DNA of 64,000 nucleotides from Ziziphus jujuba (Eukaryota > Streptophyta > Magnoliopsida > Rosales > Rhamnaceae): positions 12,455,001-12,519,000 of the forward strand of contig NC_083389.1 of assembly GCF_031755915.1 (NCBI RefSeq). Direction: 5' to 3'. A model generated the notes under the pieces. It searched no databases, was not told the origin of the DNA, and saw nothing but the letters and a program-made list of their open reading frames with translations. Below are positions 16,043 to 49,834 of this stretch, in pieces. Made by a program: the position numbers and the translations under genes. Position 1 is the stretch's first letter; every line of letters begins with the position of its first letter.

Positions 16043-16048
16043 TTTCAA

Positions 16049-16463
16049 GATATCTAAAATGCATTATTGAATGGATAGACACACATACATTTATATGTAT
16101 ATATAATATTATTATATATAGATATAATGACTGGATAGATATTGTGTGTTGCAGTAGTCTGATTTGAAATGAAAAGTTGTCTTTTAAAAAAAGAAAAAAG
16201 TATAAAATCAGCGTACACGAAGGGTATATATAAACTAAGATGGGTGGATGTAAAAATAAATAAAAAATAAAAAACAACATAAAGCAAAAGATGAAATAAG
16301 CTAAAAAGAATGTAGCGTTAGTGAGGATGCATTGAAGAAGGCGCAAGAATCTTTCATTATGTATGACTTTCGTTTCTGTTCCCTACTTGCTTCATGAGAA
16401 ATTGTATTACCTATACTTCATCCCTAAAGACAATGTTACAATTATATTCCAATTTCTACACCC

Positions 16464-16509
<46 letters not shown>

Positions 16510-16740
16510 GGGTTAAAAAAAAAAAAAATGCTTAAGTATACTTTCATATTATATTTACAGCAGTATATATAATATAATTCTCATTTCCAGAATGTACTTT
16601 AAAGGAAGACCAATTTTTTACCCTCATCATGTGCATTCAGTATATGCATATGATCATTAGTGTTGAATTTCCAAGAGTCATTTCGCCTTTTTGTAGAAAT
16701 CTTCATCAATATAGAGTTAATATTCTTAGTTCTTAATTCA
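16049..16740. other. Upstream region of pseudogene B, low complexity
   Basis: AT-rich with an (AT)n tract near 16,468-16,496 and A-runs. Short open frames here look like chance. Confidence 0.5.
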
Positions 16741-17350
16741 CTGAGCACAAAAAAAAAAAAAAAGGGTAACTTGATTCTTTTTCTCTCATTCTTTCATATT
16801 ATTATTTTAATTTTCTTTTTTTGTGACTCCTATGAGTCCTTTATAATATGATATGAGTTTGTGTGACTAGGTCGGATGGAGAAGATATCAAGATTTATTT
16901 TTTATTTTTCCCCCAATGACGGACAATATAAATCTCATTATTATACTTCAATTCAGAAAAAAGAAACAGAAAACAAAATTGAAGTACTTTCATAAAATGA
17001 ATTCTTCAAATTGATTCAAAAAGCTGCATTTGTCCTTTCATATAGACAAACTGAGATTACTAACTCGACCCATTTAGAGCAAAAGCAAAAGATTTCTTTG
17101 CTTAATCTTCAAGAAACAGATGAACTACTTTAACTAGCCGAGACCAAGTCCGGTACTATGACCAAGTCAACTTCCATTCAGCCAATAAAGACTTGTTTGA
17201 AGTTCCACATACGTTTATTGCACCACTTATGTACATGTAACACGCACATCAACTTACACAACCACTTGCACACCGTTCGATCTACCTCAATAGTTATTGA
17301 GTTCAAGACTAAGAAAATTGAGATGAGATAAAAAGTGCAGAGGGAAAAAA
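16740..17350. repeat. Extra copy of the MATE 3' flank
   Basis: Matches 19,735-20,100 downstream of the intact MATE gene in the same order: an AAAAGGGTTAA/AAAAGGGTAAC start, the GAGTTTGTGTGA block, the TTTCTTTG...CAAGAAACAGA block, the ACCACTTGCACA block and the AATAGTTATTGAGTTC-type block. No MATE exons follow it directly, so the gene body that belonged here is gone. Confidence 0.65.
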
Positions 17351-17870
17351 AGTTGAGAATTCGCTGTTAGGGTTATTTTTTATGCAAACACCTGTTATCA
17401 AAAGCCTAAAATTTTCTAGCAAACTATAAATAGCTTTTTTGCATAATACCGTTAGAAAATAATTTATATTTAACTGTATATTTATGCCAATTAAATTTAA
17501 GCAATATAAATTTTTATGTCTCGTAGAAAATAATTTATATTCATCGAAGATGATCTAAGCAACAAATCCTTAATGGTGATCCATGGCATTTTGATGAAGC
17601 TCTTGTATTGTTTGGGAATGTACCACCAAGGGATTGATGTCTCTTTTAAGACATTATAGTTTTTTGCTTTGAATAAGTGCATTTGTGAATATAACAAAAC
17701 CTTTAGACAGAGGTAGGCTAATCATATTGATATTATATATAGTTGATGATGATCAACAATGAAGGAAATATCGCTTTTAGAGGCTTTTATGCGTTCATAT
17801 TCATGACAGCTTAATTCTTCCTCAAACATTGACATGTTTGTCCATTATGCAGTCTCAGATCATGCTGTTT

Positions 17871-17904
<34 letters not shown>

Positions 17905-17987
17905 CTTTATTATGGTGGATACCAAATATGTATGTTCCTCGACATTAAGTATGAAAGTTATGGTGCATATACGATATGCATCATAGT

Positions 17988-18022
<35 letters not shown>

Positions 18023-18103
18023 CTTTTATTGGAAAACAAAATTACAAGACAATTATATATAGAATGTGAGCCTTTAATTCAATATTGTCTTGGAACTAAT
18101 GAC

Positions 18104-18134
<31 letters not shown>

Positions 18135-18180
18135 TTTAAATCACGCTGTTCTAAATGAATTTAGGGGAAAAAAAAAAAAA
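17351..18180. other. Intergenic, microsatellite-rich
   Basis: AT-rich DNA with (AT)n tracts near 17,876-17,901, 17,994-18,019 and 18,113-18,134. Nothing gene-like is seen. Confidence 0.5.
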
Positions 18181-18289
18181 AAGCTAATTTTACTATTTTC
18201 TTTTTCTTTTTTTAAATGAAATTTGACTATATTTTCGAAACATCAATTCTACAATTGAATCGAAAGGCTCCTTTTATTCTTTTATTTAG

Positions 18290-18650
18290 AGGGGACAAAA
18301 AAACATTCAGAATCAGAGCAGAAAGGAAAAGATTTCTTTGTTTTTGTCCTCAAAAGACACAGAAACTTCAAAGAATATATACTTCAATAGTCCTTGAGAT
18401 GGGATAGCGGCAAACATTAATCAGCAGTACATTACTATATAGCAGTTCCACATTCTTAAATTACTTGGGTTAATTAAATCTTCCAAGATCATCCATCTCT
18501 CTCTCTCTCTCTGTGCATCTCTTGAAAACTGTATAAATATAACATGACGGAGAGAGATATAAAAATTTTAAAAAATAGAAAATTACCATGGAAGCAAATC
18601 CAGTGACAGTCCCTGGAATCGGCAAGGGTTGCACTGACTGAAGGTGTGCA
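18290..18650 (-). pseudogene. MATE copy D: 3' flank joined to intron 1 and exon 1 end (gene body deleted)
   Basis: 18,300-18,395 matches the MATE 3' flank (GGAAAAGATTTCTTTG... and a CTCAA.AGACACAGA-like block). 18,415-18,587 matches intron 1 of the intact gene (the CAGCAGTACATTA...AGCAGTTCCACATTC block, then the CT repeat and TCTTGAAAA). 18,588-18,648 is the end of exon 1 (minus strand, ATLAD.S..TVTG-like) followed by the ATG|GTAAT donor. Two bases are missing around the SWATV codons. Exons 2-7 are absent, so an internal deletion removed almost the whole gene. Confidence 0.6.
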
Positions 18651-18861
18651 AGGTGTGTAATAATGAACTAAAATAAATGAAGTAAAAGTGAATGAACTGT
18701 CATGGACCTGGATTTGACTCAATGGATGAAGTAGAAATTTTATAATAGTTAGACCGAGAACATTATACAGAAACTATCATTTAAATTTTTTTTCTTTAAC
18801 ATAGATGTTAAATCCTTTAATATAAAGTTCTTTTTTGTGTAGGTAGGTAGGTAGGATATGT

Positions 18862-19025
18862 GGGCATGTTTGGCACATGGGATTGGATTAAAATAATCCG
18901 CTATCCCACATTTGACAAGAATTACGGATAGAAATAACAAATCCAGAACTGCAAATGGGATAGAGATTGAAATTGAAATGAAATAATCTGAATCCCACGT
19001 TTGGGCCAATAGTTGACGGGATTAA
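18862..19025. mobile_element. Possible truncated Tourist-like MITE
   Basis: Begins GGGCATGTTTGG, a sequence typical of Tourist-type inverted ends, followed by GATTGGATT-type words and their complements near 18,895-19,020. A matching right end is not found. Weak call. Confidence 0.3.
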
Positions 19026-19433
19026 AAAATCTTGGATTCACCAAATAATTTAGGATAAAGAGATTATCTCATATTTTGTAATTCATATACATATATATAT
19101 ATATATATATATATGTGTATATATAAGTCCCAATAATAGGAAGCAACAGAAACCGTTCATCCAATCAGGTGCTAAATCAAAGTGGATTTTGCTGCAGAAA
19201 CCGTTCATACATTGAAATATGGAAATGTTTGAAAGGGATTTATGAAAAGTTTAAGCAGAATATCTAGAAGAGGAGGTGCATTGATATAAACAGCCTGAGC
19301 CATGAGGTGCTACAACGCTACTACAACTTAAACTATTTCATCCAATCAGGTACACCAACATACACAAGTGCTATAAAAAACTTTAACAAACTTTTGTATT
19401 TCTTAAATCCATCTTAACGAATTACCATTATTT

Positions 19434-19477
<44 letters not shown>

Positions 19478-20182
19478 GTTTTCAAGTAACTTTTACACCA
19501 TTGCTTTAGTTGCCAACCATTTCAGGAAAAGAAAGCTACTTTTGTTATAACACATGAATAATTTTTAGGGGAAAAATATACTATTAAACTTATAATTTTT
19601 TTTTTTTTTTAAAGAAGTACTATTAAGATATGGATAAATTGAGTAAACATCTTGCATAATTTATTCTTTTTTTGCATATACTGTCGTGTATTTTTTTTTT
19701 TTAACAAAATGCTATGATTAAAAAAAAAAAAAAAAGGGTTAACATTTTAATTCTTGTTCTCTCATTATTTTGTATTTTTTTTTCTTTTTAATTTTTTCCA
19801 ACACTTTTAATATGTGAGTTTGTGTGATTCGATTTGCACAAGAGGATATAAAGATTGTATTTAGAAAACAAGAAACAGAAAATATAGTCATGCAATTGAA
19901 TTCGGAAAGGAAAACATTTCTTTGTTTTATCCTCAAGAAACAGAGGAATTACTACAACTAGCAAAGTGTATAACAGGAGGTCCACTCCACACCACTTGCA
20001 CATCTACTTCAAATTCAATAGTCATTCAGTTTGGAGACTAATTGCTTCTCAGGAAGAGAGACAAGATGAGTTGAGAAAGACTAAGGGAAAAAAATAAAAT
20101 AAAATAAAATTGCTAGAATTCACTGTCAATATGAGGGTTAATTTTCAAGGAAACCACAATTATCTAATCTAAAAAGCCTGAA

Positions 20183-23109
20183 TTAAACCAGAAGTGGGTT
20201 TTCTTTATCTCCATTTTCAGACAGATTCAGTTTGGTCCATTTTGTGCGCAATGTTATGACCAAAAGTGTGGCAGTTTGACATGACAGACCACAGATCAAT
20301 CCAATCCACAACCCCTGTAGCAAAATGAAACACCAAAAATTAATGGAAATCGAAACTAATGAACACACAAATCAACCAGCTGATCCATTAGGAATGTCAA
20401 GCTTTTACAATTAGTATGTCAAAATTAAATGTCTGTTATGAAAAACAGGAAGCAAGATATTTCTTCTTCACCTTGACATATAGATTTAACTTGAATCCGA
20501 GAAGGACTGCAATAGTCATGCCGACGACATAGAATGTAACCAAGTTGACATATACAACTATTTGCTGCCAACCACATCCTCTGGCCACACCTGCATTGTC
20601 AAACTCATTTTCATGAACAGTAACAAGGAAATATAAAAGGAAAAAAAAAAAAATAAAAAAATAAAAATTGAAAATTGGGGGATCCCTACCTGATAAGACA
20701 CCTTGAATAGAATCAGTTATTATTGAAATTGAAAGCAGGGGTGTCATGGATGCAAATTCTGTTATTATTGCAGAACTGTCACTGAAGAAACCAGCCCATA
20801 TATTATGACCAAAAGCTAGAGCCAATACCATAGCCAGAGCAAGAAGCAGGGAGAGTTTCAGGGTTACTGCCATAGCTTTCTTAGCTTGCTCAGGATTTCC
20901 TGCTCCTAACTCATTTGACACCCTTGTGCTGTCACACCAAGATGTGTTAATGTACAATACAGAATGCAAAAAATGGAGGAACTTGAAATCACATAGTTAG
21001 TTTATTATACCAACCTAGCAGCAGCACTTAGACCGTATGTGATCATATAAGCAATTGTTTCTGTACTCACACTGAAAATATAGACCACAGAGCCTTTTAG
21101 GAGTAGTGAACTGGCAAAAATACAAGGTTAAAACTGATCAAATCCATGACTTTGTGAAGCTTACCAAATTGCAATTAGTGAAGTGGTTTCTGTTGAATTT
21201 GGCATCAATCCGGCCAAGAACACCAGAATCTCAAACGCCCAGTACTCCAAACTGGACAAAATCATAAACGTGAGATTCATGTGATATAATTTCTATCCCA
21301 AACTAAAAATCTTATGTTGATTAATATCATATGTCCTTTTGTTCAACTAATACTGATGATCAGGTTACATTAATAACTGCATTAGAATTTGGTTACATAG
21401 TCTTTCGGTTCAATAATAGTTATCCATTGGTACTTGCAGGCCTAGTTCCCTAAAGGGTAAATATGTTTCCAATTCATCTAAACTGTAAACGAAAACAAGA
21501 ATCGAGTTCACTGACTTACCACACCATAGCAGCAGAGGGCAGGGCAAGTTTCAAGATTGTAAAAATGTAGTGGAAGGATTCCATTGAAAATCCAGTCCAT
21601 GTATGTTTGAACTCCTTTGCAAAAGCCACATACATGGCTAACGCAAGGAGTGAAATCCACAATGAAATTGAAGCTGCCAGTGGAGCTCCCTTGAATCCAA
21701 GTGCTGTCCAATTTACCAAACTATATGCAATGCCAATATGAAAGAGCATAGGAAGCATTGAAAGGAAAACCAAAGGCAAAACAACAGATTGTGTCTGAAG
21801 AAACCTCAAGATGTTTTGCATAAACCCAAATGCAAATATTCCTGGAATCAGAAACCTCGTATAGAGCGCGGCTGTTTTAGAAATTTGAGGGTCTTGTTGA
21901 AGTAAAACCAGTATTGGTTCTGTATAGAACCAGAAGATGGAGATGATGACAGAGAAGATGAAGGATATGATGCTAGATGCTTGGAGATAAATCCCCAGCA
22001 TTCTGTATAGCTTTGCACCAAATCCTTGCCCACAAAGCGTCTCAAGAGCTCCACTTAACCCAACCTGAAACAAGAACAGAAATGAACTTGAAAACAATAT
22101 AAAGCTCTTGAAATACGTGAATTACGTTTAGCTCAAAGGAGCAGAAAAAGTAGTTTCAGAAAAGTTTTCAATGATTAAAGTACTAGAAATCAGAATTGTC
22201 GGTCTTATGCATGGCATGTACAATTAGGATGACAAGTGATTGTATCTTGATTGACGTAAAATGATGATAGTACCGCCATAAAATGAAAATTGTCTGCAAT
22301 ATTCAAGGAATAATAACACACGAAACAACTGAGGAAGAAATTCTTGGTCTCACCATCATGAAGAATTAGCAAATTAAACTCGATCCTCATGTACCATTAA
22401 TTGTAATTGTCATCATTGTCACCACCATCAACTATTTTTATTTTAAAAAAATTAAACAATTAATTTTGTTGAAAAAAATTTCGCAAGCGAACAATTATAT
22501 ATACGCACACATGGAACATGCACCGCTTCTCCTTTCAAAAAAACAAGTGTGATCATTTATATTTGCTCCATTACATTCAGCAAGGTTTGCCCAATTCCAA
22601 TCATACATGTTAAACATTAGTCAGCAGCACATTAATAGCAGTTCCACATTCATAAACCACTTGAATTAGATTCCAAATCACCCATTTCTCTCTCTCTCTC
22701 TCTCTCTCAATTTCTTGAAAAGGGCACATCATGAAAATGTAAATATATATAAAAAGAAAAAGTTAGAAAGAGAAATGGATACATATATATATATACATAA
22801 AAAAGGTATTACCATGAAAGCAAAGCCAGTGACAGTAGCCCAAGAATTGGCAAGGGTTGCACCGGCGAGCTGAAGGTTTCCGAGGTGACCGGCGAACATA
22901 ACCGAGACGAGAGTTATCAAGTAATAGAAAAGATTGGTTATTATCATCGGCATCGAGAACCAAACTTGTTTCTTAGCTTCCTTCATATCCAATACTCTGT
23001 TCCACCACCTAATTCCTCTGTTTTCTTCTTCTTCTTCCCCTCCATCTTCCTCTAACAACGGATCAGAATTACTAGTATTTGTAGTAACTATGCTCGTGTT
23101 TGCCATCAT
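20183..23109 (-). CDS. MATE efflux transporter (DETOXIFICATION family), intact, 7 exons, 491 aa
   Basis: Proton- or sodium-coupled carrier of the MATE/DTX family, which exports toxins or secondary metabolites, usually at the plasma membrane or tonoplast. Substrate and membrane cannot be read from the sequence. Exons (minus): 23109-22813, 22064-21520, 21251-21165, 21071-21015, 20928-20690, 20590-20472, 20314-20183. All have GT-AG borders and together give 1,476 nt in one frame. The N-terminus is a short acidic cytosolic tail ([13 protein letters not shown]). Family blocks visible include [43 protein letters not shown], a [20 protein letters not shown] helix across the exon 2/3 join, [13 protein letters not shown] and VARGCGWQ. 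Many hydrophobic helices fit a 12-TM carrier, and the length is normal. The start is an ATG-ATG pair; either may serve. It is most like the DTX14-18 group, from family memory. It is the only intact member of the local array. Confidence 0.93.
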
Positions 23110-23840
23110 ATCGCTGAATTTTTATTTTTGCTTCCCTGTTTTCTTCTACAATTATAATTAATTTCTTCCTAGGAATATTAATTCTAATTCTTCACATATG
23201 ACTTTCTTTTTTCCTTTTTTTCTTTTTTTTTTTCCGGGAAAAGAAGTGTTTTATGAACCATAAGAGGCAGGCGCTGGAAAATATTACTGTTTCTTCAATG
23301 GTCTCCGTACGAATAACATTTATTTTTGGTCCAACAGCTTCTGAGTCCGACGTGGACACATCACACAGGATGCAGATAGTCGTATTTCTTGTCGTTCTCA
23401 AATATTTAAGTAGTACTTTATTTATTTATTTATTAAAATAAATATAATCTCTTTTCTTTTTTCTTTTTTCTTTTTTGGGATAAATATGGTATGATATTTT
23501 TTTATTATGTTTTATTTTGTTGTACTTTTTTGGTGTTACAAGTGTAGAAAAACAGACAAAAAAAATTTTTTAATTAAATTAATTGTGAGAATGGCCATCG
23601 TTTCAATATGTTATTTATGTCATGTAGGACAGATAAATGTAAATTAACAATTTGTTAGTTGACTTCAAATTTTAATATAAAAAAGGGAATATCTATTATT
23701 ATTATATATTGTTATTATTTTCCTAGAACAAAAACAAAAACTATTAATGCATTATATAATAAATCGGGCCTTGATTGTTTTGAATCAACTATATTATTAT
23801 TGTCGGTGGATTTTTAACCCATCTCATTTAAATAGACTTT
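23110..23840. promoter_or_regulatory. Upstream region of the intact MATE gene
   Basis: Non-coding. T/C-rich near the start codon, then a more complex block about 23,230-23,400 and AT-rich sequence beyond. No confident TATA box or other motif is assigned. Confidence 0.35.
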
Positions 23841-36900: not shown

Positions 36901-37490
36901 TATTAGGGTTTTTTGTGGTTCCTTAATTTTTTGGTCATGGGTTTTTCATTTTTCATGGGTGGGGACTAAGGGGCTTTCATTGGTTTCTACTAGTGTTGAT
37001 TACAGTTTTCGCTTTTTTAATAAATTGTCAGTGTGAATTGCTTAGCTTGCAAGTTGTTGTTAGTTTGTCCCTTTTTTGTGGTTTCTGAGGCGTTTTTTTT
37101 GGGATAGGGGTAATTTAGAAGTTTCCTCCTTTTGTGCGTCTTTCTCTTTTTCTTCTATAAGGGAGGGGGGGTTACTGTTTGCCTAAACATTTTTCATATT
37201 GAATTTGGATTCTTGGGCCTTCCTAAATTTTTTGTTCTGGGGATCTGATTTCTAAGTCGGGATTGGTGAAACTCATTGGTTTTGGTAGTAGTCTGTTGCT
37301 TAATTTGCAAGTTTGAAACTTAGTAGAGGTCTTTTGGGAAGTGGGAGTGTGAAGGTTACTTTCATTTGGCTTTTTCTTTTCTTACTCCTGAAAGTGCCAG
37401 TGCATGCCAATGATCTCTCAGATACATCTGAGTTTATGGAAGTGCAGTAAGCCTTGAGTTGAGTTGGTGAAATCTCCTTGTGTTCCAGTA
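36291..37490 (+). promoter_or_regulatory. Probable promoter and 5' leader of the PSKR2-like gene
   Basis: Contains two long pyrimidine repeats, (CT)n near 36,341-36,372 and 36,868-36,896, typical of plant core promoters and leaders, within T-rich sequence lacking long frames. A leader intron is possible but not assigned. Several upstream ATGs with short frames are present. Confidence 0.4.
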
Positions 37491-40400
37491 ATGGTGGTGC
37501 TTAGCTTTATCCCAGTCACATTTCTCAAATGGTTATTCTTGGCCTGCTTTCTCTCTTCATCTTTGGGTCTCAATACCCGAACCCAATCCTGTCATCCAAA
37601 TGATTCCAAGGCATTGAAAGAGTTTGCTACAAACCTCACGAATGGGTCTATTATCACAGCTTGGTCTCAGGAATCCCTTTGTTGTCACTGGATTGGTGTT
37701 TTCTGTGAGAATGTAAATAATGGGTCTTTCTCTAGCAGAGTGACCAAGTTGATTCTGCCAAATATGGGTCTCAGAGGAACGATTTCAAGTTCTTTGGGTC
37801 AATTACATGAACTGAAATTGCTTGATCTTTCATGCAATTATCTTGAAGGTGGATTGCCTGCTGAGCTCTCAAACTTGAAGCAGCTGGAAGTTGTTGATTT
37901 AAGCCATAACAGGCTGACAGGAGCAGCTTCCGTGGCACTTGCTGGTTTGAAGTCCATTAAAGTTCTGAACGTTTCAAGCAATTTATTCAATGGCAGTTTG
38001 TCAGAGCTCGAAGGAGGGTTTCCACATCTTGCTGCATTCAACATAAGCAACAATTCATTCACTGGTCAGTTTGTTTCTCAAATTTGCAGCTCTTCTAGTG
38101 TGATTCGGGTTCTTGATGTATCCTGGAACCGTCTGGTGGGAAATCTTGAAGGCTTAGACAATTGCAGCTCAACTCTCCAACAATTTCATGCTGATAACAA
38201 TAAGTTTTCAGGGCATCTGCCTGAATCCTTGTATTTGATGCCGGCATTGCAGCGACTCTCTGTTTCTGGGAACAATTTCTCCGGCAAGATAAGCCAGAAT
38301 TTGAGTAAGCTCTCTAGCCTTAAGGCCTTTGTTGTTTTTGGAAATCAGCTTTTTGGCGAAATTCCAAATGTGTTTGGTAATCTTACACAACTAGAATTGT
38401 TAGTCGCACATTCAAATTTCTTATCTGGGCCATTGCCTTCAACCTTGGCACTTTGCTCAAAGCTTAGAGTGCTTGATCTCCGGAACAATTCACTAAGTGG
38501 TCCTATTGATCTAAATTTCACTGGACTCCCTAATCTCTGCACACTTGATCTTGCTACTAATCATTTTTCCGGGCCCCTTCCGACTTCACTGTCTTATTCC
38601 AGTGAGTTGAAAATCTTAAGCCTTGCCAGGAATGAATTAAGTGGTCCAATCCCTGAGGACTTTGCAAACCTCAGGTCCCTTTTGTTTCTCTCATTGTCAA
38701 ACAACAGTTTTGTGGATTTATCTGGTGCGCTTTCCGTGCTTCAGCAATGCAAAAACTTGACCACTCTTATCCTGACAAAGAATTTCATTGGTGAGGAAAT
38801 TCCAAACAATGTGAGTGGGTTTGAGAGCTTGATGGTTCTGGCAATTGGGAATTGTGCTCTTAAAGGAAAAATTCCAATGTGGTTGTTGAGCTGCAGGAAG
38901 TTGGAAGTCCTTGATTTGTCGTGGAACCATTTAGATGGCATGATACCTTCTTGGATTGGTGAGATGGAGAACTTGTTTTATTTGGATTTCTCGAACAACT
39001 CTCTCACCGGAGACATTCCAAGAAGTTTGACGGAGCTAAAGACCCTCATTTCTGCAAACTGTACTTCGTCGAATATTCCTGCTTCTACCGGCATTCCACT
39101 ATATGTAAAGCGAAATAAGAGTGCTAGTGGTCTGCAATACAACCAGGCCTCAAATTTTCCGCCATCAATCTACTTGAGCAATAATAGAATAAGTGGAGAA
39201 ATTTGGCCTGAAATTGGGCGATTGAAACAGCTGCATGTTTTAGATTTGAGCAGGAACAACATAACTGGAACCATACCGAGATCCATTTCAGAGATGGAGA
39301 ACTTGGAAACATTAGATTTATCGTACAATAATCTATATGGTTTTATCCCTCCATCATTCAGCAAGCTCACATTCCTGTCAAAGTTTAGTGTGGCATATAA
39401 TCACTTGCAAGGAGACATTCCAAAGGAAGGACAATTCTTAAGCTTTCCCAGCTCGAGCTTTGAGGGTAACCCAGGACTTTGTTGGCAAATTGATACTCCA
39501 TGTGGCATAAATGGGAGTAGAGGTCTAAAGCCTTTAATCCACGCCGGCTCATCAAACAGTAGATTAGGTCGAGGCAGCATTCTTTGCATAACAGTCAGTA
39601 TAGGAGTTGGGATTGCCTTGCTTCTTGCAATTGGTCTACTCAAAATGTCGAGGAGGGAGGCGGAGGATCCAGCTGATCCTTTTGATGAGGAAATCAGCCG
39701 CCCACGCAGGTTATCTGAAGCACTTGCCTCTTCGAAGTTGGTGCTTTTCCAGAATTCAGATTGCAAGGATCTCACAGTTGCAGACTTGTTAAAATCTACG
39801 AACAATTTCAACCAAGCCAACATAATTGGTTGCGGAGGTTTTGGTTTGGTTTACAAGGCCAATCTTCCCAGTGGCACAAAAGCTGCAATCAAGAGACTTT
39901 CTGGGGACTGCGGTCAGATGGAACGTGAATTTCAAGCTGAAGTTGAAGCCCTCTCAAGAGCTCAGCACAAAAACCTCGTTTCTCTTCAGGGTTATTGCCG
40001 GCATGGCAGTGACAGGTTGTTGATCTACTCTTACATGGAGAATGGAAGCTTGGATTACTGGCTGCATGAGAGTGTTGATGGAGGTTCACTTCTGAAATGG
40101 GATGTAAGACTCAAGATAGCTCAAGGTGCTGCTCGTGGATTAGCTTACTTGCACAGGGGTTGCCAGCCGAACATAGTTCATCGGGACATAAAATCTAGCA
40201 ACATACTTTTAGATGAAAGATTTGAAGCTCATTTGGCCGATTTTGGTCTGTCAAGGCTACTTCGGCCTTATGATACTCATGTCACAACAGATTTGGTTGG
40301 GACTTTGGGCTACATTCCTCCCGAGTATAGTCAAACATTAACTGCAACTTTCAGGGGTGACGTATACAGTTTCGGTGTTGTTCTCCTGGAGCTTCTTACC

Positions 40401-40652
40401 CGTAGGAGGCCAGTTGAAGTTTGCAAAGGGAAAAACTGCAGGGACTTGGTGTCTTGGGTCTTTCAGATGAAATCTCAAAGGAAAGAGGAAGAGATCATAG
40501 ATCCATCAATTTGGAATAAGGATCTTGAGAAGCAGCTTCTAGAGGTTCTTGGTATTGCTTGTAAATGCATACACCAGGATCCAAGGCAGAGACCCTCTAT
40601 TGAAGAAGTTGTTTCATGGCTACATGCTGTTGGATATGAGAGTTGTCAATGA
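37491..40652 (+). CDS. PSKR2: Leucine-rich repeat receptor kinase, phytosulfokine receptor 2-like, 1,053 aa, intronless
   Basis: Plasma-membrane receptor kinase that, in its family, perceives the sulfated pentapeptide phytosulfokine and promotes growth. The true start is the ATG at 37,491; an open TTG nine codons upstream is not a start. A hydrophobic signal peptide (about 1-28) is followed by the CHPNDSKAL block, a Cys pair (CCHW) and about 20 LRRs. A non-LRR island (about 518-556, including the GIPLYVKRNKSASGL block) interrupts the late repeats, the ligand-binding feature of PSKR proteins. A C-terminal Cys cap lies near 662-670 and a transmembrane helix near 695-719. The kinase is complete: GCGGFG at 780-785, Lys801, HRD at 897-899 (RD type), DFG at 917-919, then GTLGYIPPEY. 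The CKGKNCRDLVSWVFQMK block and the intronless frame match Arabidopsis PSKR2 better than PSKR1, from family memory. Confidence 0.94.
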   Translation: MVVLSFIPVTFLKWLFLACFLSSSLGLNTRTQSCHPNDSKALKEFATNLTNGSIITAWSQESLCCHWIGVFCENVNNGSFSSRVTKLILPNMGLRGTISSSLGQLHELKLLDLSCNYLEGGLPAELSNLKQLEVVDLSHNRLTGAASVALAGLKSIKVLNVSSNLFNGSLSELEGGFPHLAAFNISNNSFTGQFVSQICSSSSVIRVLDVSWNRLVGNLEGLDNCSSTLQQFHADNNKFSGHLPESLYLMPALQRLSVSGNNFSGKISQNLSKLSSLKAFVVFGNQLFGEIPNVFGNLTQLELLVAHSNFLSGPLPSTLALCSKLRVLDLRNNSLSGPIDLNFTGLPNLCTLDLATNHFSGPLPTSLSYSSELKILSLARNELSGPIPEDFANLRSLLFLSLSNNSFVDLSGALSVLQQCKNLTTLILTKNFIGEEIPNNVSGFESLMVLAIGNCALKGKIPMWLLSCRKLEVLDLSWNHLDGMIPSWIGEMENLFYLDFSNNSLTGDIPRSLTELKTLISANCTSSNIPASTGIPLYVKRNKSASGLQYNQASNFPPSIYLSNNRISGEIWPEIGRLKQLHVLDLSRNNITGTIPRSISEMENLETLDLSYNNLYGFIPPSFSKLTFLSKFSVAYNHLQGDIPKEGQFLSFPSSSFEGNPGLCWQIDTPCGINGSRGLKPLIHAGSSNSRLGRGSILCITVSIGVGIALLLAIGLLKMSRREAEDPADPFDEEISRPRRLSEALASSKLVLFQNSDCKDLTVADLLKSTNNFNQANIIGCGGFGLVYKANLPSGTKAAIKRLSGDCGQMEREFQAEVEALSRAQHKNLVSLQGYCRHGSDRLLIYSYMENGSLDYWLHESVDGGSLLKWDVRLKIAQGAARGLAYLHRGCQPNIVHRDIKSSNILLDERFEAHLADFGLSRLLRPYDTHVTTDLVGTLGYIPPEYSQTLTATFRGDVYSFGVVLLELLTRRRPVEVCKGKNCRDLVSWVFQMKSQRKEEEIIDPSIWNKDLEKQLLEVLGIACKCIHQDPRQRPSIEEVVSWLHAVGYESCQ

Positions 40653-42964: not shown

Positions 42965-43555
42965 ATGAAAGCTATCAAAAAGACTTTGCCTCACTACTAT
43001 TCCCCACCTCCCATCAAATTCTCCAGGATTTGCTTCTCTTCAGCCTATGAACGTGCAGAGGTAATTAATTATTAATTTAATTTGATTATAACATAAAAGC
43101 TGATCAAATGCTGATTGATTTGATCAAATTTGGGAATCAAATTTTTTTTTTTTTTTTTTTGGTTTTTTTTTTTGGGGTTTCAGGGAAGCAATGCAGTAGG
43201 AGTAGCAAGAGAGGGTAAGAATGGAGGTGGCACATCGGGGTTGTCTTACACACCCAAGGAGACCGTGAAAGAAGGCCTATACGAAGCCAAACAACAAGGA
43301 TTAGACATGACAAACGATGCAGCAGCAAGAGATGGACCAACCAAACCAGCAGAGATGGCAGACAATGTGAAAGAAACCGCTAAGAAGACCATGGATGGTG
43401 CTTGGAAAGCAGCCAGAGATACCACCAAAAACATCAAAGAAGCAATTATTGGAGAAAGTGATGAGAATGAAGGCCCTAACAAAGGGAATGTACAAGATTC
43501 TGGTGTTGAGGATTTGAGAAGGCGTGCTGGAGGATATGATCTTGGTGATCATTGA
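42965..43555 (+). CDS. LEA-like protein 1, probable mitochondrial presequence, 2 exons, 155 aa
   Basis: Exons 42965-43060 and 43184-43555, phase-0 GT-AG intron of 123 bp with a T-rich 3' end. Exon 1 encodes a 32-residue basic leader with no acidic residue until near its end and an SRICFSSAYE segment, resembling a mitochondrial presequence with an Arg near the cleavage site. Exon 2 encodes a hydrophilic, Cys-free, Ala/Lys/Glu/Asp-rich protein with amphipathic helix-like units (ETAKKTMDGAWKAARDTTKNIKEA), typical of LEA_4-type or related dehydration-protection proteins. The open frame beginning inside the intron at 43,130 is not the start. The partner gene at 51,645 has the same plan. The family label is by composition and motif. 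Confidence 0.82.
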
Positions 43556-43886: not shown

Positions 43887-43895
43887 ATTTATACA
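43887..43895. repeat. Left 9-bp target duplication of the Pack-MULE
   Basis: ATTTATACA, identical to 49,826-49,834. Confidence 0.88.
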
Positions 43896-43990
43896 GGGGG
43901 AATTTGGCCCAATATCCTCATAAGACCGAGGTGAATGATTTTTGCCCTCTCATTTATATCTTTTTTGTTCTACCCCTTCAATTTTTTATA
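43896..43990 (+). repeat. Left terminal inverted repeat of the Pack-MULE
   Basis: Pairs with the complement of about 49,731-49,825; both include GAATTTGGCCCAATA, ACCGAGGT.AATGATTTTTGCC and ATATCTTTTTTGTTCTACCC blocks. Confidence 0.85.
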
Positions 43991-44399
43991 ATCCCAAAAT
44001 ACCCTTATGTTTTTTTTTATATGTTTTTTTTCTTTCCTTTTTCATCCGACTTTTCTCCTCCATCTCTTTATCCATAACCAGACCATTAGGAGCCCTCTGT
44101 CTCCTTTCGCATCGGCCGGATTGTAAGCGTGGAGACTGTACGTTTTGAAGGAGATGGTGAAGAGGCGACTCAGAGAGAAAACTGCAGGGTTTTAGAGAGC
44201 CCTAGGAGCAAAAGCAGAAGCAACAGGTAGGCAACAGTGAAGTAGGAAAGCATGAGGCTCATTCTATCAATCACTAGTAATCTTCTCCTCTCCATTTTCA
44301 AATTCTTAAGCTTTTCTCCAAACATTTTCTTACTTGTTCGCTAATAATGAAATTGTTTTTTTTTTTTAAAAATAAATAATATATTTTAGATTGTTACAA

Positions 44400-44705
44400 T
44401 TCAGGGTAGCGTCATTCAGTGCTGCGAGAGGTGGAACGGCAATACTTCAGTGCGATTTCAACAGAGGAATACGCAAGGAGGAACTACGCAAGCAATGTCT
44501 CTGAGTATAACACTGTTATCGGTTCTCTCACCGCGCAGAGAAGGTAGATTCTAATTTTGATTTTCTTTTTGTGGTTTTGGGATTTTTTTTTTTTATGGGG
44601 AAAAATTGTGAAAGTTGTGTTCTTTTTTTTTTTTTTTTTTAATAACGATGGTGGTAGGCATTTCTTGCTGAGAGATGTGTATGATGATATGATGCTGGAT
44701 GGAGT
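44400..44705 (+). pseudogene. Captured PPR-gene fragment (inside Pack-MULE)
   Basis: Two exon pieces. The first ends at 44,543 with codons for YFSAISTEEYARRNYASN then VSEYNTVIGSLTAQRR, followed by a GT donor. The second starts after an AG near 44,659 with HFLLRDVYDDMMLDGVP. This closely recalls a conserved mitochondrial-type pentatricopeptide-repeat protein of the At4g35850 type (from memory). An apparent one-base slip lies just before the YFSAI codons. The fragment stops abruptly at about 44,705, where CTF18 sequence begins, so it is a capture junction rather than a gene end. Confidence 0.78.
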
Positions 44706-46991
44706 ACCCCAAATGATGTTCTATCTGCTTTAAGATGACATTCTTCAATTTCTCAACATCGAAAATCTCTGGATTCTAATTTTCCAAGGAAGAACAGAGG
44801 ATCAAGATGGAATAAGGAAGATTTTAGTCATTCTAATGCTTTGGACCATAAAGATATTGGTGCGAAAGGTGTTCAAGACTTGTGGAACAAAAAATCAAGG
44901 TCTACAGGTCCACCAGAACAGAAGGTGAGATTTTTTTCATCATATTTTTGTCCTGTTTAATATGCATCTTATCGATCTGTGCATTCTTCAAAACATAAGA
45001 TGAAATTATTATGTTATTAGTAATGATTTTCTTCTGTATCGGTACTAGATGCTGTAAAATCAAACATGTAAAAAGATGTTTCTGATAGGTGCTTGCCACA
45101 TGCCAGTCACATTTACTATGAGGAAGCATTGACCACGTTCCAAATATTTGATATTTTCAATTGCTTAGGAAGTGCTTTTTGGGTAGCATCCCAGAAGTCC
45201 TGGTGGCATTTTTCTCCTTTGTGTAATTTTTTGCTGAATAACCTTTCTTTTGTCTTGTGGAATTTTTTGCTGAATAATCTTTTTTTGGTTTTGGTTTAGT
45301 TGATTTACTGATATTTTGTTTTCAATCTTTTGATAATTTTATTCTATCATTAGCTCTCATGTTCACCATTCTCAAGGCTTCCTGTATAATATCAAGGACA
45401 CATACTATTTGCACAATAAAAATTGCCTTGATTAGGTTTGCCAGTTTGCAAATATACTATGAAATACCCTAGCCATTTGGATTTGTTGATTCTATACTCT
45501 CATATATATTTCTCTTTCATCTCTCTCATATAATGTTGATGATCACCTCAATGTTATATATAAAAAACTAGCAAAGGAGAGTTCATCAAGAAGAAAACCA
45601 ACTGGTCCTTTATTTATTTGGGATAGTTGTTAAGTAGCCTGTATTAATGGACGAATGAATGGTTTTCTCAAAACGGTTTCTTAAAGTGAAGATGTTGAGG
45701 ATGTTGTGTCTCCAATAAGCAAGCCGCAGATTGTTGCTAAGTCACAGTAGCTAACAATGAATGTGGAAATCTTAGCTTAAGTACTTGGAAAAGAAAGTAA
45801 CTGCTTTGAAGATTGATCTGTATAAAAATTAAGGGAAAAGGAGCTCTGATTTGCAATAATTGGTGAAATTTTTTTTTCTTCTTTTGCTCACCGTTAAATC
45901 CCCAAGTTTAATTGAAATATCCTTTGTATAACAAGGAACTGGAAAACAAGATTTCCACTATAGTGGAATCCTATTTACATTTCCCATGTTTCTTTGACTT
46001 GTATATGACTGATTGATGTATGCAGTAATTGTTTCTCTTGATTTTATATTTGTGTGTGTCTATGTTATTAACTTATGTTAGTAGAGTCCATAAACATGAG
46101 CCCATACATTATTTTTGCCCTACATTTTGTTTTTCATTTTTTTTTTCTTTTTAACACTTTACTTTTTAGTTTCATTGTTATCTCTTCTAGTCTGTTATTT
46201 CTATTTCCTTTATCTTTCCCTCAAGTGTTTTTTACTCTGTAGGTTAATGCTAGTGATGATCGGTCATCATCAACAATTGAAGCAAAAATTCTTGATGTAG
46301 TGCAGATGAACTCTGTCACTGTTGACTCGAGGCCAAAGTGCTTGGTTGGTATTATTTTTTATGGTTACCCTTCTTATTCTAGAATGTATGCAGAAGAAAC
46401 AAGTTACTACTTTTTCTCTAGGTGATTGATGAAATAGATGGAGCTCTTGGTGATGGCAAATGTGCTGTGGAGGTTATTCTAAAGATGGTAATTGTGTGTT
46501 TTATATTATTATTATTCCTATGAGAGTCTTGTGTGTTTTCCATTATTGAATGCTGCTTATTTATTAAATTTAATTGTCTGCACGCTTATTTGTGTTTCAA
46601 TATAATTGTAGTTATAGTTATTTTATTACTATAATTGTTGTTGGTGATTAAATATAACTGCTTTCGTTGTTATCAGTTATTGTTGTCATGTATAATTCTT
46701 GTTTTCCTTAATGTTTAATGTAAACTGTCAGTTATTGCATTTACTTCATTATCAACATGAGAATCATAAGGGAAATTTACTGTTTAAACTCCATGGTTGC
46801 ACATTATATACGTTAACAGAAACCTCCATTTCTACCGAGGGTAATATATTCAGCTATGGTGGTTTTTATTTCCCAGTGCTCATTATATTTTTCACTTTTA
46901 TTTTATGTTGTTCATATAGGTTTCTGCAGATAAGAAGTCTGATACAGGGAAGGAGAATTTTCCAAATGAAGAAAATCATGAAAGTACATAG
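44706..46991 (+). pseudogene. CTF18: Captured CTF18 (RFC-like clamp-loader) fragment (inside Pack-MULE)
   Basis: Recognisable exons: about 44,706-44,924 (DVLSAL..., ...NRGSRWN..., VQDLWNKKSR.TGPPEQK), 46,243-46,344 (VNASDDRSSSTIEAKILDVV...RPKCL), 46,422-46,487 (VIDEIDGALGDGK.AVEVILKM) and 46,920-46,991 (VSADKKSDTGKEN..., then TAG). The DEID Walker-B box identifies the AAA+ ATPase of the alternative clamp loader that loads PCNA for sister-chromatid cohesion. Splice borders are kept. The exon that should carry the Walker-A P-loop (GPPGLGKT) is absent between 44,925 and 46,242. Exon 1 has a TGA in place of a sense codon after VLSALR. It is non-functional. Confidence 0.85.
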
Positions 46992-47514
46992 AAAGTTTAT
47001 CATTCATATGGAGTTTCCTTTTCATGATTCCCTGGAAAATGGTACACCCGAACGCCCATCAATCGCATGATGCTATATTCAGACAATGAGGCCATGTTAT
47101 GTGGTATGCGTGTGTATGAAATGTAGTCAGGAATGCAATTAGTTGGTCAACCGCGTAACATGTGTTTTGGCGTAAGAGACGTTGGCTTTATGTGTTCTTT
47201 TATTGTCAAATTCATCTGTCGTATTGTTTTGATAACACATCATTCCGTCTTCAGTTTTTGGTTCAGTTGTTTGTATGTTTCTTACTATTGCATGGATGAT
47301 ATTACTGCCCAATGGTAATGACCAATGCATCATCGGTAATTGACATTTGTACACCTTCGTAAAAGACTCACAACAATTCCATCCGGCAACTTCAATCATG
47401 TGCGTTCCAACCAATAACATGCTAAATGTAGCATTATTAATGATAAATTCTGGCAAAGTAAGTGATCAAACGGCATTAAAAAATGAAAACGTTCAATTTG
47501 TTTTTGATTCAAAA
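46992..47514. other. Pack-MULE interior of unknown origin
   Basis: Moderately complex sequence with no recognised family. It may be a further captured piece or the element's own subterminal DNA. Confidence 0.4.
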
Positions 47515-49345
47515 ATTACCGAAGGTTTCGTCGGTAATTACCGAAATCCTATGGCAATTACATTTTACCAATTTTTTGGGCCCCATAAGGTGTGTTGAAT
47601 GCAAAAAAATGAAAAATATGGATTCTAAAATTATCCTAAGGAGAGAAAATCCCAAAATTGTTTAAAAAGTTCTCAAATTTTCTAAAAAAATACGATGACT
47701 GTACACGATCGGTAATTCCCGAGGAAACCGTCGGTAACCAACAAATACCCTCTGGAAAAATTACCGACGGTTTCGTCGGTAATTACCGAGGGTGTACAGT
47801 CTATCACATTTTACCAATTTTTTGGGCTCCACAAGTCCCATAACGTGTGTTGAATGCAAAAACATGAAAAATAGGGATTCTAAAATTATACTAAGGAGAG
47901 AAAATCCCAAAATTTCATAAAAGTATCCCAAATTTTGCAAAAAAATTGGATGACTGTTCACCCTCGGTAATTCCCGAGAAAATCGTCGGTAACCAACACA
48001 TACCCTTTGGAAAAATTACCGACGGTTTCGTCGGTAATTACCAAGGGTGTACAGTCCATCACATTTTACCAATTTTTTGACCCCCACAAGTCCCATAACG
48101 TGTGTTGAATGCAAAAACATGCAAAATAGGGATTGTAAAATTATACTAAGGAGAGAAAATCCCAAAATTTCATAAACGTGTCTCAAATTTTGCAAAAAAA
48201 TTGGATGACTGTACCCCCTCGGTAATTCCTGAGGAAACCGTCAGTAACCAACCACATACCCTCTGGAAAAATTACCGACGGTTTCGTCGGTAATTACCGA
48301 GGATGTACAGTCTATCACATTTTACCAATTTTTTGGGCCCCACAAGTCCCATAACGTGTGTTGAATGCAAAAACATGAAAAATAGGGATTCTAAAATTAT
48401 ACTAAGGAGAGAAAATTCCAAAATTTCATAAAAGTGTCCCAAATTTTGCAAAAAAATTGGATGACTGTTCACCCTCGGTAATTCCCGAGGAAATCGTCGG
48501 TAACCAACACATACCCTTTGGAAAAATTACCGACGATTTCGTCGGTAATTACCGAGGGTGTACAGTCCATCACATTTTACCAATTTTTTGGGCCCCACAA
48601 GTCCCATAACGTGTGTTGAATGCAAAAACATGCAAAATAGGGATTGTAAAATTATACTAAGGAGAGAAAATCCCAAAATTTCATAAACGTGTCTCAAATT
48701 TTGCAAAAAAATTGGATAACTGTACCCCCTCGGTAATTCCTGAGGAAACTGTCGGTAACCAACCACATACCCTCTGGAAAAATTACCGACGGTTTCATCG
48801 GTAATTACTGAAGATGTACAGTCTATCACATTTTACCAATTTTTTGGGCCCCACAAGTCCCATAACGTGTGTTGAATGCAAAAACATGAAAAATAGGGAT
48901 TCTAAAATTATACTAAGGAGAGAAAATCCCAAAATTTCATAAAAGTGTCCCAAATTTTGCAAAAAAATTGGATGACTGTTCACCCTCGGTAATTCCCGAG
49001 GAAATTGTCGATAACCAACACATACCCTTTGGAAAAATTACCGACGGTTTCGTCGGTAATTACCGAGGGCGTACAGTCCATCACATTTTACCAATTTTTT
49101 GGGCCCCACAAGTCCCATAACGTGTGTTGAATGCAAAAACATGCAAAATAGGGATTGTAAAATTATACTAAGGAGAGAAAATCCCAAAATTTCATAAACG
49201 TGTCTCAAATTTTGCAAAAAAATTGGATGACTGTACCCCCTCGGTAATTCCCGAGGAAACCGTCGGTAACCAACCACATACCCTCTGGAAAAATTACGGA
49301 CAGTTTCGTCGGTAATTACCGAGGGTGTACAGTCATCCAATTTTT
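47515..49345. repeat. Tandem array, units of about 255 bp (seven full units), arranged as 511-bp dimers
   Basis: A block starting ATTACCGACGGTTTCGTCGG recurs at 47,515, 47,760, 48,015, 48,271, 48,526, 48,782, 49,037 and 49,293. Successive spacings are 245, 255, 256, 255, 256, 255 and 256. Two unit types alternate: one with TGTTCACCCTCGG and CATACCCTTTGG, the other with TGTACCCCCTCGG and CATACCCTCTGG. Each unit contains ATTACCGACG-GTTT-CGTCGGTAAT, a 10-bp perfect hairpin. Minus-strand open frames through the array are by-products of the repeat. Confidence 0.92.
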
Positions 49346-49377
49346 TTGCAAAATTTGAGATACGTTTATGAAATTTG
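49328..49377. repeat. Inverted end of the tandem array
   Basis: Reading TGTACAGTCATCC...GAGATACGTTTATGAAATTT, this is the reverse complement of the unit stretch AAATTTCATAAACGTGTCTC...GGATGACTGTAC. The array thus flips orientation right where the RbcX fragment starts. Confidence 0.8.
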
Positions 49378-49388
49378 TATCTCACAGT

Positions 49389-49684
49389 TTTCACATCGTC
49401 AAAGCTGTCTTCATACTGCCCAGCAAATTCATTGACAATCTTAAGCCTCCGATTCTTTCTCTGCTTCCTCAAACTCCGACTGGCAATACGAGGAAGAGCT
49501 TTGACTGAGAGCCGCCTATCATGTCCAGAATCAATGAAGGAACTGCTCAACTCCAAAGACCCAGTAGGCTTCACGGTATGCTTCTTCCCCATTGAACTGT
49601 TATAATTCGTCTGCAAAACCAGATCTCCACCACTTTTCAGATTCATATTGGTTGTAGGAAGTGCATCCAAACACAGACATGGTT
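49389..49684 (-). pseudogene. RBCX: Captured RbcX fragment (inside Pack-MULE)
   Basis: On the minus strand, codons read CLCLDALPTTNMNLKSGGDLVL, then GSLELSSSF, then RRLKIVNEFAGQYEDSFDDVKT. This is the first exon of plant RbcX, the chloroplast chaperone for Rubisco large-subunit assembly, up to the point where the next exon would begin in the host gene. The start region and later exons (the INYFTYKAVRTVL helix) are missing. A 287-codon open frame runs through it only because the fragment is fused in frame to the tandem array and to the terminal repeat. Confidence 0.82.
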
Positions 49685-49730
49685 TAAAATATAATAGGAT
49701 ATGTAAGTAATTTTTTTTTGTTTGAAGGTT

Positions 49731-49825
49731 ACAATGGATATTGAAGGGTAGAACAAAAAAGATATCAAGTGAGGGGGCAAAAATCATTAACCTCGGTCCT
49801 ATGAGGGTATTGGGCCAAATTCTCC
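49731..49825 (-). repeat. Right terminal inverted repeat of the Pack-MULE
   Basis: Complement of 43,896-43,990 (see there). Confidence 0.85.
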
Positions 49826-49834
49826 ATTTATACA
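49826..49834. repeat. Right 9-bp target duplication of the Pack-MULE
   Basis: ATTTATACA, identical to 43,887-43,895. Confidence 0.88.

What the first reader, a model, noticed from the sequence alone, without database searches (positions are those of the whole stretch)
43887..49834. A Pack-MULE carrying pieces of three unrelated host genes (PPR, CTF18, RbcX)
Between 95-bp inverted ends and a perfect 9-bp target duplication lie exon-intron fragments of a mitochondrial-type PPR gene, the CTF18 clamp-loader ATPase and the Rubisco chaperone RbcX. The first two abut at about 44,705 in the same orientation; RbcX is opposite. A three-donor chimera with introns kept is a strong example of transposon-driven exon shuffling, and any transcript could act as antisense or small-RNA source against the parents.
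Basis: partly seen in the sequence, partly recalled or inferred. Interest (0 to 1): 0.85.

Follow-up and report, generated by a model that had tools for sequence, protein, structure and literature searches.

The report
Transposon carrying three captured gene pieces
In what is probably the jujube tree genome, a 5.9-kb crippled jumping gene carries pieces copied at different times from three ordinary plant genes; most of its sampled relatives are larger and carry two of the same pieces, so it is a clear but not unprecedented case of transposons picking up and spreading gene fragments.

Summary
A 5,930-bp element (43896-49825) has ~87-bp inverted ends (79 of 87 columns alike) and a perfect 9-bp target duplication. 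It carries fragments of a mitochondrial-type PPR gene (At4g35850 ortholog), CTF18 and RbcX2. The genome is Ziziphus jujuba or very near it. The likely donor of each was located there: PPR on C4, CTF18 on C3, RbcX2 on C10.

The interpretation needs changing. The element is not a one-off. The PPR-CTF18 pair is in 19 of the 20 other copies read over 10 kb; 17 of these 20 also hold MULE transposase sequence (full-length open frame in one, L011). The window copy is a non-autonomous internal-deletion derivative. Five other loci share its PPR|CTF18 junction; a sister on C7 has all three fragments and its own 9-bp duplication.

Capture was stepwise: PPR is old (K 0.11-0.14), CTF18 (0.013-0.02) and RbcX2 (0.023) young. 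The chimera cannot encode a fusion protein: premature stops, an out-of-frame junction, Walker A exon missing. The RbcX2 piece is almost only exon 1. The antisense/siRNA role is untested. A well-resolved new member of a known kind.

The parts
43887..43895 (.). left copy of 9-bp target site duplication ATTTATACA
   Evidence: exact; two + strand occurrences in window
43896..43982 (+). left terminal inverted repeat
   Evidence: 79 of 87 columns alike with the right end; 41 genome matches, best 40 of 423 first-look candidates scored
44126..44707 (+). PPR (At4g35850-type) fragment: 5'UTR, ATG at 44252, exon 1, intron 1, exon 2 (from 44389, with an in-frame TAG), intron 2, start of exon 3 (from about 44658)
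   Evidence: likely donor on C4, ATG at 32116791
44701..44707 (+). PPR|CTF18 junction at 7-bp microhomology GGAGTAC, out of frame
44701..46025 (+). CTF18 fragment, 5' part: exon reading DVLSALR*HSSISQHRKS...PPEQK and the following intron
   Evidence: 96% to donor over 1,343 columns; K2P 0.013
46025..46989 (+). CTF18 fragment, 3' part: exons NASDDRS.., VIDEIDG.., VSADKK.. with introns; 491 donor bases with the Walker A exon are missing at its left edge
   Evidence: 97.8% to donor over 965 columns; Walker A exon position
47045..47050 (.). scar of internal deletion (4 bases of unmatched filler); in L011 about 5.2 kb including the transposase frame lies between these points
47511..49334 (.). 255-bp tandem array, 7.2 copies, CpG-rich
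49187..49376 (.). fold-back (83-bp arms, 24 nt between) ending the array
49374..49682 (-). RbcX2 exon-1 fragment (309-bp alignment; its first six bases may be overextended) ending about six bases into intron 1
   Evidence: 7 of 309 differences from donor C10; shared by 5 other copies
49740..49825 (-). right terminal inverted repeat
49826..49834 (.). right copy of target site duplication

Best explanation
A non-autonomous, internally deleted copy of a jujube TIR-MULE family whose larger members carry MULE transposase sequence, a 255-bp tandem array and, in some, a reverse-strand DUF1985/Ulp1 (KIU-type) gene. The lineage picked up host DNA in layers. First the whole PPR gene. Then a multi-exon stretch of CTF18, most simply placed in a late PPR intron as the C8 locus shows. 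Nested deletions then gave type A (PPR exon 4 | CTF18) and type B (PPR exon 3 | CTF18, at a 7-bp microhomology). Separately, RbcX2 exon 1 was placed next to the right TIR. The window copy is a type B left half, a deleted middle and an RbcX2-bearing right end, mobilised in trans by relatives' transposase. It cannot code for a fusion protein; its host fragments are passengers that could at most feed small RNAs. Shown: ends, duplications, likely donors, shared junctions, divergences, transposase sequence in relatives. Inferred: donor status, order of the nested deletions, trans mobilisation, silence.
For: Ends and TSD. Family: 7 of 7 other TIR loci share TIR+PPR and 6 of 7 share CTF18 within the 3 kb read. 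In 20 ten-kb stretches, 19 have PPR, 19 CTF18, 17 transposase matches; none of transposase, ULP or DUF1985 matches anywhere in the window. MULE domain E 8.6e-19 in an 895-aa open frame of L011; DUF1985 and Peptidase_C48 on the other strand in L010. Type B junction at 5 further loci, 94-97% over about 2.5 kb. The 5 type A copies compared end CTF18 at donor position 4315 (4 of 5) or 4310, as the window does (4315): one capture. C7 sister with all three fragments and exact TSD TTTTTTATT. Donors: PPR C4 without TIR in the 171 bp read upstream and without stops in the exons read; CTF18 C3; RbcX2 C10, exon 1 100% to P0001. Divergence layers. PPR copies with C-terminal exons and a TIR upstream.
Against: No single element was read end to end with TIR, PPR-CTF18, transposase, array, KIU gene and TIR; of the 20 stretches only L010 showed both ends, and it lacks transposase sequence and has one mismatch in its 9-bp duplication. 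Only L011 of 20 has a full-length open transposase frame; 16 others are broken or cut by the end of the stretch. L026 has TIR and array but no PPR or CTF18 match. C8 and type B share 1 derived gap-free site while C8 has 10 of its own, so a common CTF18 capture for the two is not proved. One search lists stops in rows of the C4 PPR donor; the two stretches read show none inside exons, but not all exons were read. The four RbcX2 copies besides the window and C7 were not read leftwards. Only top-scoring candidates were examined.
Confidence: 0.87

Rival explanations
1. A classical Pack-MULE: a small non-autonomous MULE that captured three host genes by itself, unconnected with transposase-bearing relatives.
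For: The window copy has no transposase match and three fragments between TIRs.
Against: Family members with the same TIR, PPR and CTF18 in the same order carry transposase sequence, and window DNA on both sides of the scar flanks the transposase in them.
Confidence: 0.07
2. Type B arose from type A: a type A element recombined with the CTF18 donor gene through shared homology, copied more CTF18 upstream and re-joined PPR at GGAGTAC, so that already captured fragments act as landing pads for further capture.
For: Type B CTF18 continues type A's upstream without a seam and both end at the same donor position. The 5' part is slightly closer to the donor (17 of 1310) than the 3' part (19 of 963).
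Against: The 5'/3' difference is small and its significance was not tested. A deletion model from a C8-like PPR-CTF18 element explains the order as well.
Confidence: 0.2
3. The PPR-CTF18 unit is a functional chimeric gene or serves as leader/promoter of the transposase and is kept by selection.
For: Present in 19 of 20 sampled copies between left TIR and transposase, same orientation. Predicted jujube proteins P0230, P0231, P0176 are PPR-CTF18 chimeras. PPR exon 3 pN/pS 0.50 in 21 copies.
Against: 5 of those 21 have stops; the CTF18 exon has pN/pS 2.45 in 22 copies; the window copy has stops and a frame break. Predicted proteins are annotation, not expression. The 20 stretches were chosen by likeness to the window's left end.
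Confidence: 0.1

Closest known systems
Pack-MULE / Pack-TYPE elements (PMC8903248, passages read; review PMC13317346, passages read)
   Same: TIRs and TSD around host-gene fragments; no transposase in the window copy
   Different: Most sampled relatives bear both the fragments and transposase sequence; packFinder's rule, as read, would class those as autonomous or derived from autonomous elements, not Pack-TYPE
KI-MULE / KIU-carrying MULEs (PMC2528002 and PMC13317346, passages)
   Same: DUF1985 and Ulp1 C48 frames on the strand opposite the transposase; the passages mention ULP-bearing MULEs in melon, grapevine and rice, with TIRs in melon
   Different: Additional PPR, CTF18 and RbcX2 cargo; the window copy lacks both transposase and KIU gene
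VANDAL/VANC anti-silencing system (PMC5735166, passages)
   Same: DUF1985 protein, and non-coding tandem repeats that vary between copies, as VANC targets do
   Different: No VANC motif or hypomethylation tested; likeness is architectural only
Grapevine class II transduplications (PMC2528002, passages)
   Same: Exon-intron host fragments inside DNA transposons, in some cases shared by several copies; a PPR fragment in a CACTA family
   Different: Different superfamily for the PPR case; no three-donor layering in the passages read
Tgm-Express CACTA of soybean (PMC1947982, listing and start of abstract only)
   Same: Gene fragments carried by a DNA transposon
   Different: CACTA superfamily; its title reports novel exon combinations by alternative splicing, none shown here

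Membership tests
Mutator-like element (MULE) | long TIRs and 8-11 bp (usually 9-bp) TSD (recalled definition) | tested here: met
   about 87-bp TIR, exact 9-bp TSD in window and in the C7 sister; L010 9-bp with one mismatch
Mutator-like element (MULE) | MULE/MuDR transposase in the family | tested here: met
   Pfam MULE 8.6e-19, DBD_Tnp_Mut, SWIM in L011; matches in 17 of 20 stretches, full-length open frame in 1 of 20
Pack-MULE | host-gene fragments between the TIRs | tested here: met
   three likely donors located in the genome
Pack-MULE | non-autonomous, no transposase | tested here: met
   met for the window copy: no match to the family's transposase in the window; not true of most sampled relatives
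KI-MULE / KIU MULE | ULP (C48) gene opposite to mudrA | tested here: inconclusive
   absent from the window; found in L010, L016 (DUF1985 only), L023 (ULP end only) and L026, 4 of 20 stretches; most stretches end before the right TIR
VANC-type anti-silencing target | sequence motif bound by the cognate DUF1985 protein, with loss of methylation | not testable with these tools
   only tandem structure and CpG o/e of 1.07 against 0.48-0.54 seen
Chimeric coding gene (exon shuffling) | open reading frame across the fused exons | tested here: not met
   TAG in PPR exon 2, TGA in CTF18, junction out of frame

The most novel reading that the evidence does not exclude
A KIU-type MULE lineage has adopted a captured host gene head (PPR 5'UTR, start codon, first exons and introns, then CTF18 exons) as a fixed part of its left end, upstream of and in line with its transposase. 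The host-derived leader would give the transposase a gene-like, poorly silenced start, and the CpG-rich 255-bp array would be the docking platform of the element's own DUF1985 anti-silencing protein. Captured fragments then serve as homology landing pads for more capture from the same donors, so the element grows by ratchet.
Probability: 0.1. Interest if true: 0.8.

Novelty: new member of a known kind. Interest (0 to 1): 0.45.

Why it matters
Likely donors of all three fragments, several siblings and transposase-bearing relatives lie in one assembled genome, so the order and relative age of each capture can be read: PPR 11-14% diverged from the donor, CTF18 and RbcX2 1-2%. One junction shows 7-bp microhomology. 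This bears on an open question, whether capture happens in small non-autonomous elements or in larger transposase-bearing ones that later shed the transposase; here the evidence points to the second. It also warns annotators that jujube proteins named PPR At4g35850-like (P0176, P0230, P0231) are probably transposon-borne chimeras.

Tried and rejected
Pfam on the three typed fragments gave nothing above cut-off. PDB search with the RbcX2 piece gave nothing convincing (best E 0.43, an integrase). CACTA origin of the array, considered because its CCGACG palindromes recall CACTA subterminal repeats (recall): not pursued, as the array follows the transposase in the MULE copies. Selection on PPR exon 3: pN/pS 0.50, but 5 of 21 copies have stops and the CTF18 exon gives 2.45, so no claim is made. 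Identity of a further host-like insert in L013: Pfam and PDB without a hit. A loss of the functional PPR gene in jujube was briefly considered after and dropped. Published account of this family: none recognised in searches 'Ziziphus jujuba'+'MULE' (4 papers), 'jujube'+'Mutator'+'transposable elements'+'genome assembly' (1 paper) and 'jujube'+'Pack-MULE' (2 papers); only titles and abstract starts were seen. Genome-wide transposase copy number could not be obtained (genome search did not answer that query).
Full report
WHAT IS THERE. The element occupies 43896-49825. Its ends align over 87 columns, 79 alike, 6 mismatches, 2 gaps; the score of 130 compares with at most 54 for 253 random pairs of window pieces. 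The flanking 9-mer ATTTATACA is exact on both sides and occurs on the + strand only there in the window.

SPECIES AND DONORS. The RbcX2 piece is 97% identical (72% of the query) to RbcX2 of Ziziphus jujuba. The assembly holding the window has 393.8 Mb in 14 contigs, with the window at C11:12455001-12519000. RbcX2 donor: C10:27474332-27476314, exon 1 100% to P0001. CTF18 donor: C3 minus strand, read from 16867500 to 16872776. PPR donor: C4, ATG at 32116791, exons to 32120482. It has the highest exon-3 identity to the walnut protein (85%) and no TIR in the 171 bp read at the place where other copies have it. Searches list stop codons in rows of this locus; in the two stretches read (walnut residues 203-282 and 331-443) the stops lie outside the exons. 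Exon 3 and several middle exons were not read, so donor status is a strong inference.

WHAT WAS TAKEN. PPR: from 117 nt upstream of the donor's start codon, through exon 1, intron 1, exon 2, intron 2 and part of exon 3. CTF18: donor bases 1535-2862 and 3353-4315 of the stretch read; the missing 491 bases hold the Walker A exon at 3020-3097. RbcX2: a 309-bp alignment of exon 1 with about six bases of intron 1, on the minus strand next to the right TIR. PPR and CTF18 keep introns; the RbcX2 piece holds no whole intron.

THE FAMILY. The left TIR has 41 matches in the genome, with only the best 40 of 423 first-look candidates scored. All 7 other loci first read share TIR and PPR, and 6 of 7 share CTF18 within the 3 kb read (L006 does not). 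I then read 10 kb at the 20 best-scoring of the 40 other matches. PPR matches in 19 of 20, CTF18 in 19 of 20, transposase in 17 of 20, DUF1985 or ULP in 4 of 20. L026 lacks PPR, CTF18 and transposase; L010 and L024 lack transposase. L011 has an 895-aa open transposase frame (MULE domain 8.6e-19); it is the only one of 20, the next longest frame being 529 aa and cut by the end of its stretch. In L011 the transposase lies within the 5.2 kb between the two sequences that meet at 47045-47050 in the window, and the window has no match to transposase, ULP or DUF1985. So the window copy is a deletion derivative. A walnut-PPR search lists, by my count, 56 places with PPR exon 3, one of them the donor; 95 of 1,116 candidates were scored.

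SIBLINGS. The window's PPR|CTF18 joint is found at five more loci (L031, L032, L033, L035, L036), contiguous over about 2.5 kb at 94-97%. L031 on C7 also has RbcX2 and exact 9-bp duplications, TTTTTTATT, so the three-piece assembly has moved as a unit. RbcX2 together with the right TIR is in four further copies (L052-L055); their left ends were not read.

AGES. K2P to donor: PPR 5'UTR plus intron 1 0.136 for the window and 0.110-0.130 for four other copies; CTF18 0.013 (5' part) and 0.020 (3' part); RbcX2 0.023. The window differs from its C7 sister by 0.005 in the CTF18 5' part and 0.024 in the PPR part. At a recalled plant rate of 0.65-1.3e-8 per site and year, CTF18 and RbcX2 were captured roughly 0.5-2 million years ago and PPR several times earlier. 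The rate is from memory and methylated copies mutate faster, so only the order is firm.

ORDER OF EVENTS (partly inferred). One search finds PPR C-terminal exons at 17 loci by my count, one of them the donor. Of 11 upstream windows checked (10 at loci with such exons, one, C1, chosen from exon hits alone), 9 show the TIR (8 at 81-87%, one weak at 74%); the two without are the donor and C4:5848410. At C8 a 1.74-kb CTF18 piece (donor 1500-3225) lies in a late intron of a PPR copy that has the TIR. The five type A copies compared join PPR (exon 4, inferred from P0176) to CTF18 at donor 3617; type B joins PPR exon 3 to CTF18 at 1535; both end CTF18 at 4310-4315. One CTF18 capture followed by nested deletions explains all of these. 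Type B by recombination of type A with the donor is not excluded. Type B and C8 share 1 derived gap-free site against 10 private to C8 and 3 private to type B, which does not decide it.

FUNCTION. The window copy cannot make a fusion protein: TAG in PPR exon 2, TGA early in CTF18, joint out of frame. Jujube predictions P0176, P0230 and P0231 are PPR-CTF18 chimeras, and the P0176-like C8 locus has the TIR, so these are probably transposon-borne; the C8 locus is not identical to P0176. PPR exon 3 pN/pS is 0.50 over 21 copies, but 5 have stops, and the CTF18 exon gives 2.45 over 22; I read this as no demonstrated selection.

THE ARRAY. 7.2 copies of 255 bp with CpG o/e of 1.07 against 0.48 in the rest of the element and 0.54 in the rest of the window; copy number and orientation vary between relatives. 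VANC proteins, which contain DUF1985, have targets that often form tandem repeats in VANDAL elements (PMC5735166, passages). A similar role here is a hypothesis.

COMPARISON. The window copy meets the Pack-MULE definition; its family is KIU-like. Transduplicated fragments shared by several copies of DNA transposons, and ULP-bearing MULEs, are in print (PMC2528002, passages). Microhomology at capture joints is reported for animal Pack-TIRs (PMC8277862, passages). Hence: new member of a known kind, unusually well resolved.

Noticed in passing
L013:900-1720 and L023 (similar extra spacing at the same place): Another host-like exon-intron insert inside PPR exon 3 of a family member, reading VDKQNAHFFGVTINAQQ...; a possible further donor, unnamed by Pfam and PDB.
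   Followed up: partly
window 47511-49334: CpG o/e of the 255-bp array is about twice that of the surroundings; relatives have arrays in direct and inverted orientation and of different length.
   Followed up: partly
window 43124-43552: Open frame resembling an LEA-type protein (recalled likeness; Pfam gave no hit) ends about 330 bp before the element, so the insertion may lie just downstream of a gene.
   Followed up: partly
window 559-2381: Open frames resembling a LINE reverse transcriptase (recalled likeness).
   Followed up: no
window 14776-23121 (-): Repeated frames resembling MATE efflux transporters, perhaps a tandem pair (recalled likeness).
   Followed up: no
window 37458-40649 (+): 1064-aa open frame resembling a leucine-rich-repeat receptor-like protein (recalled likeness).
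   Followed up: no
proteins P0002 and P0006: Jujube predicted proteins that are RbcX2 exon 1 joined to unrelated tails right after ..DNVKT or ..DDVKT; probably annotated from RbcX2-bearing MULE copies.
   Followed up: no
CTF18 donor C3 (L030): The donor lacks a 15-bp tract present in all 7 captured copies compared; perhaps lost from the donor after capture.
   Followed up: partly
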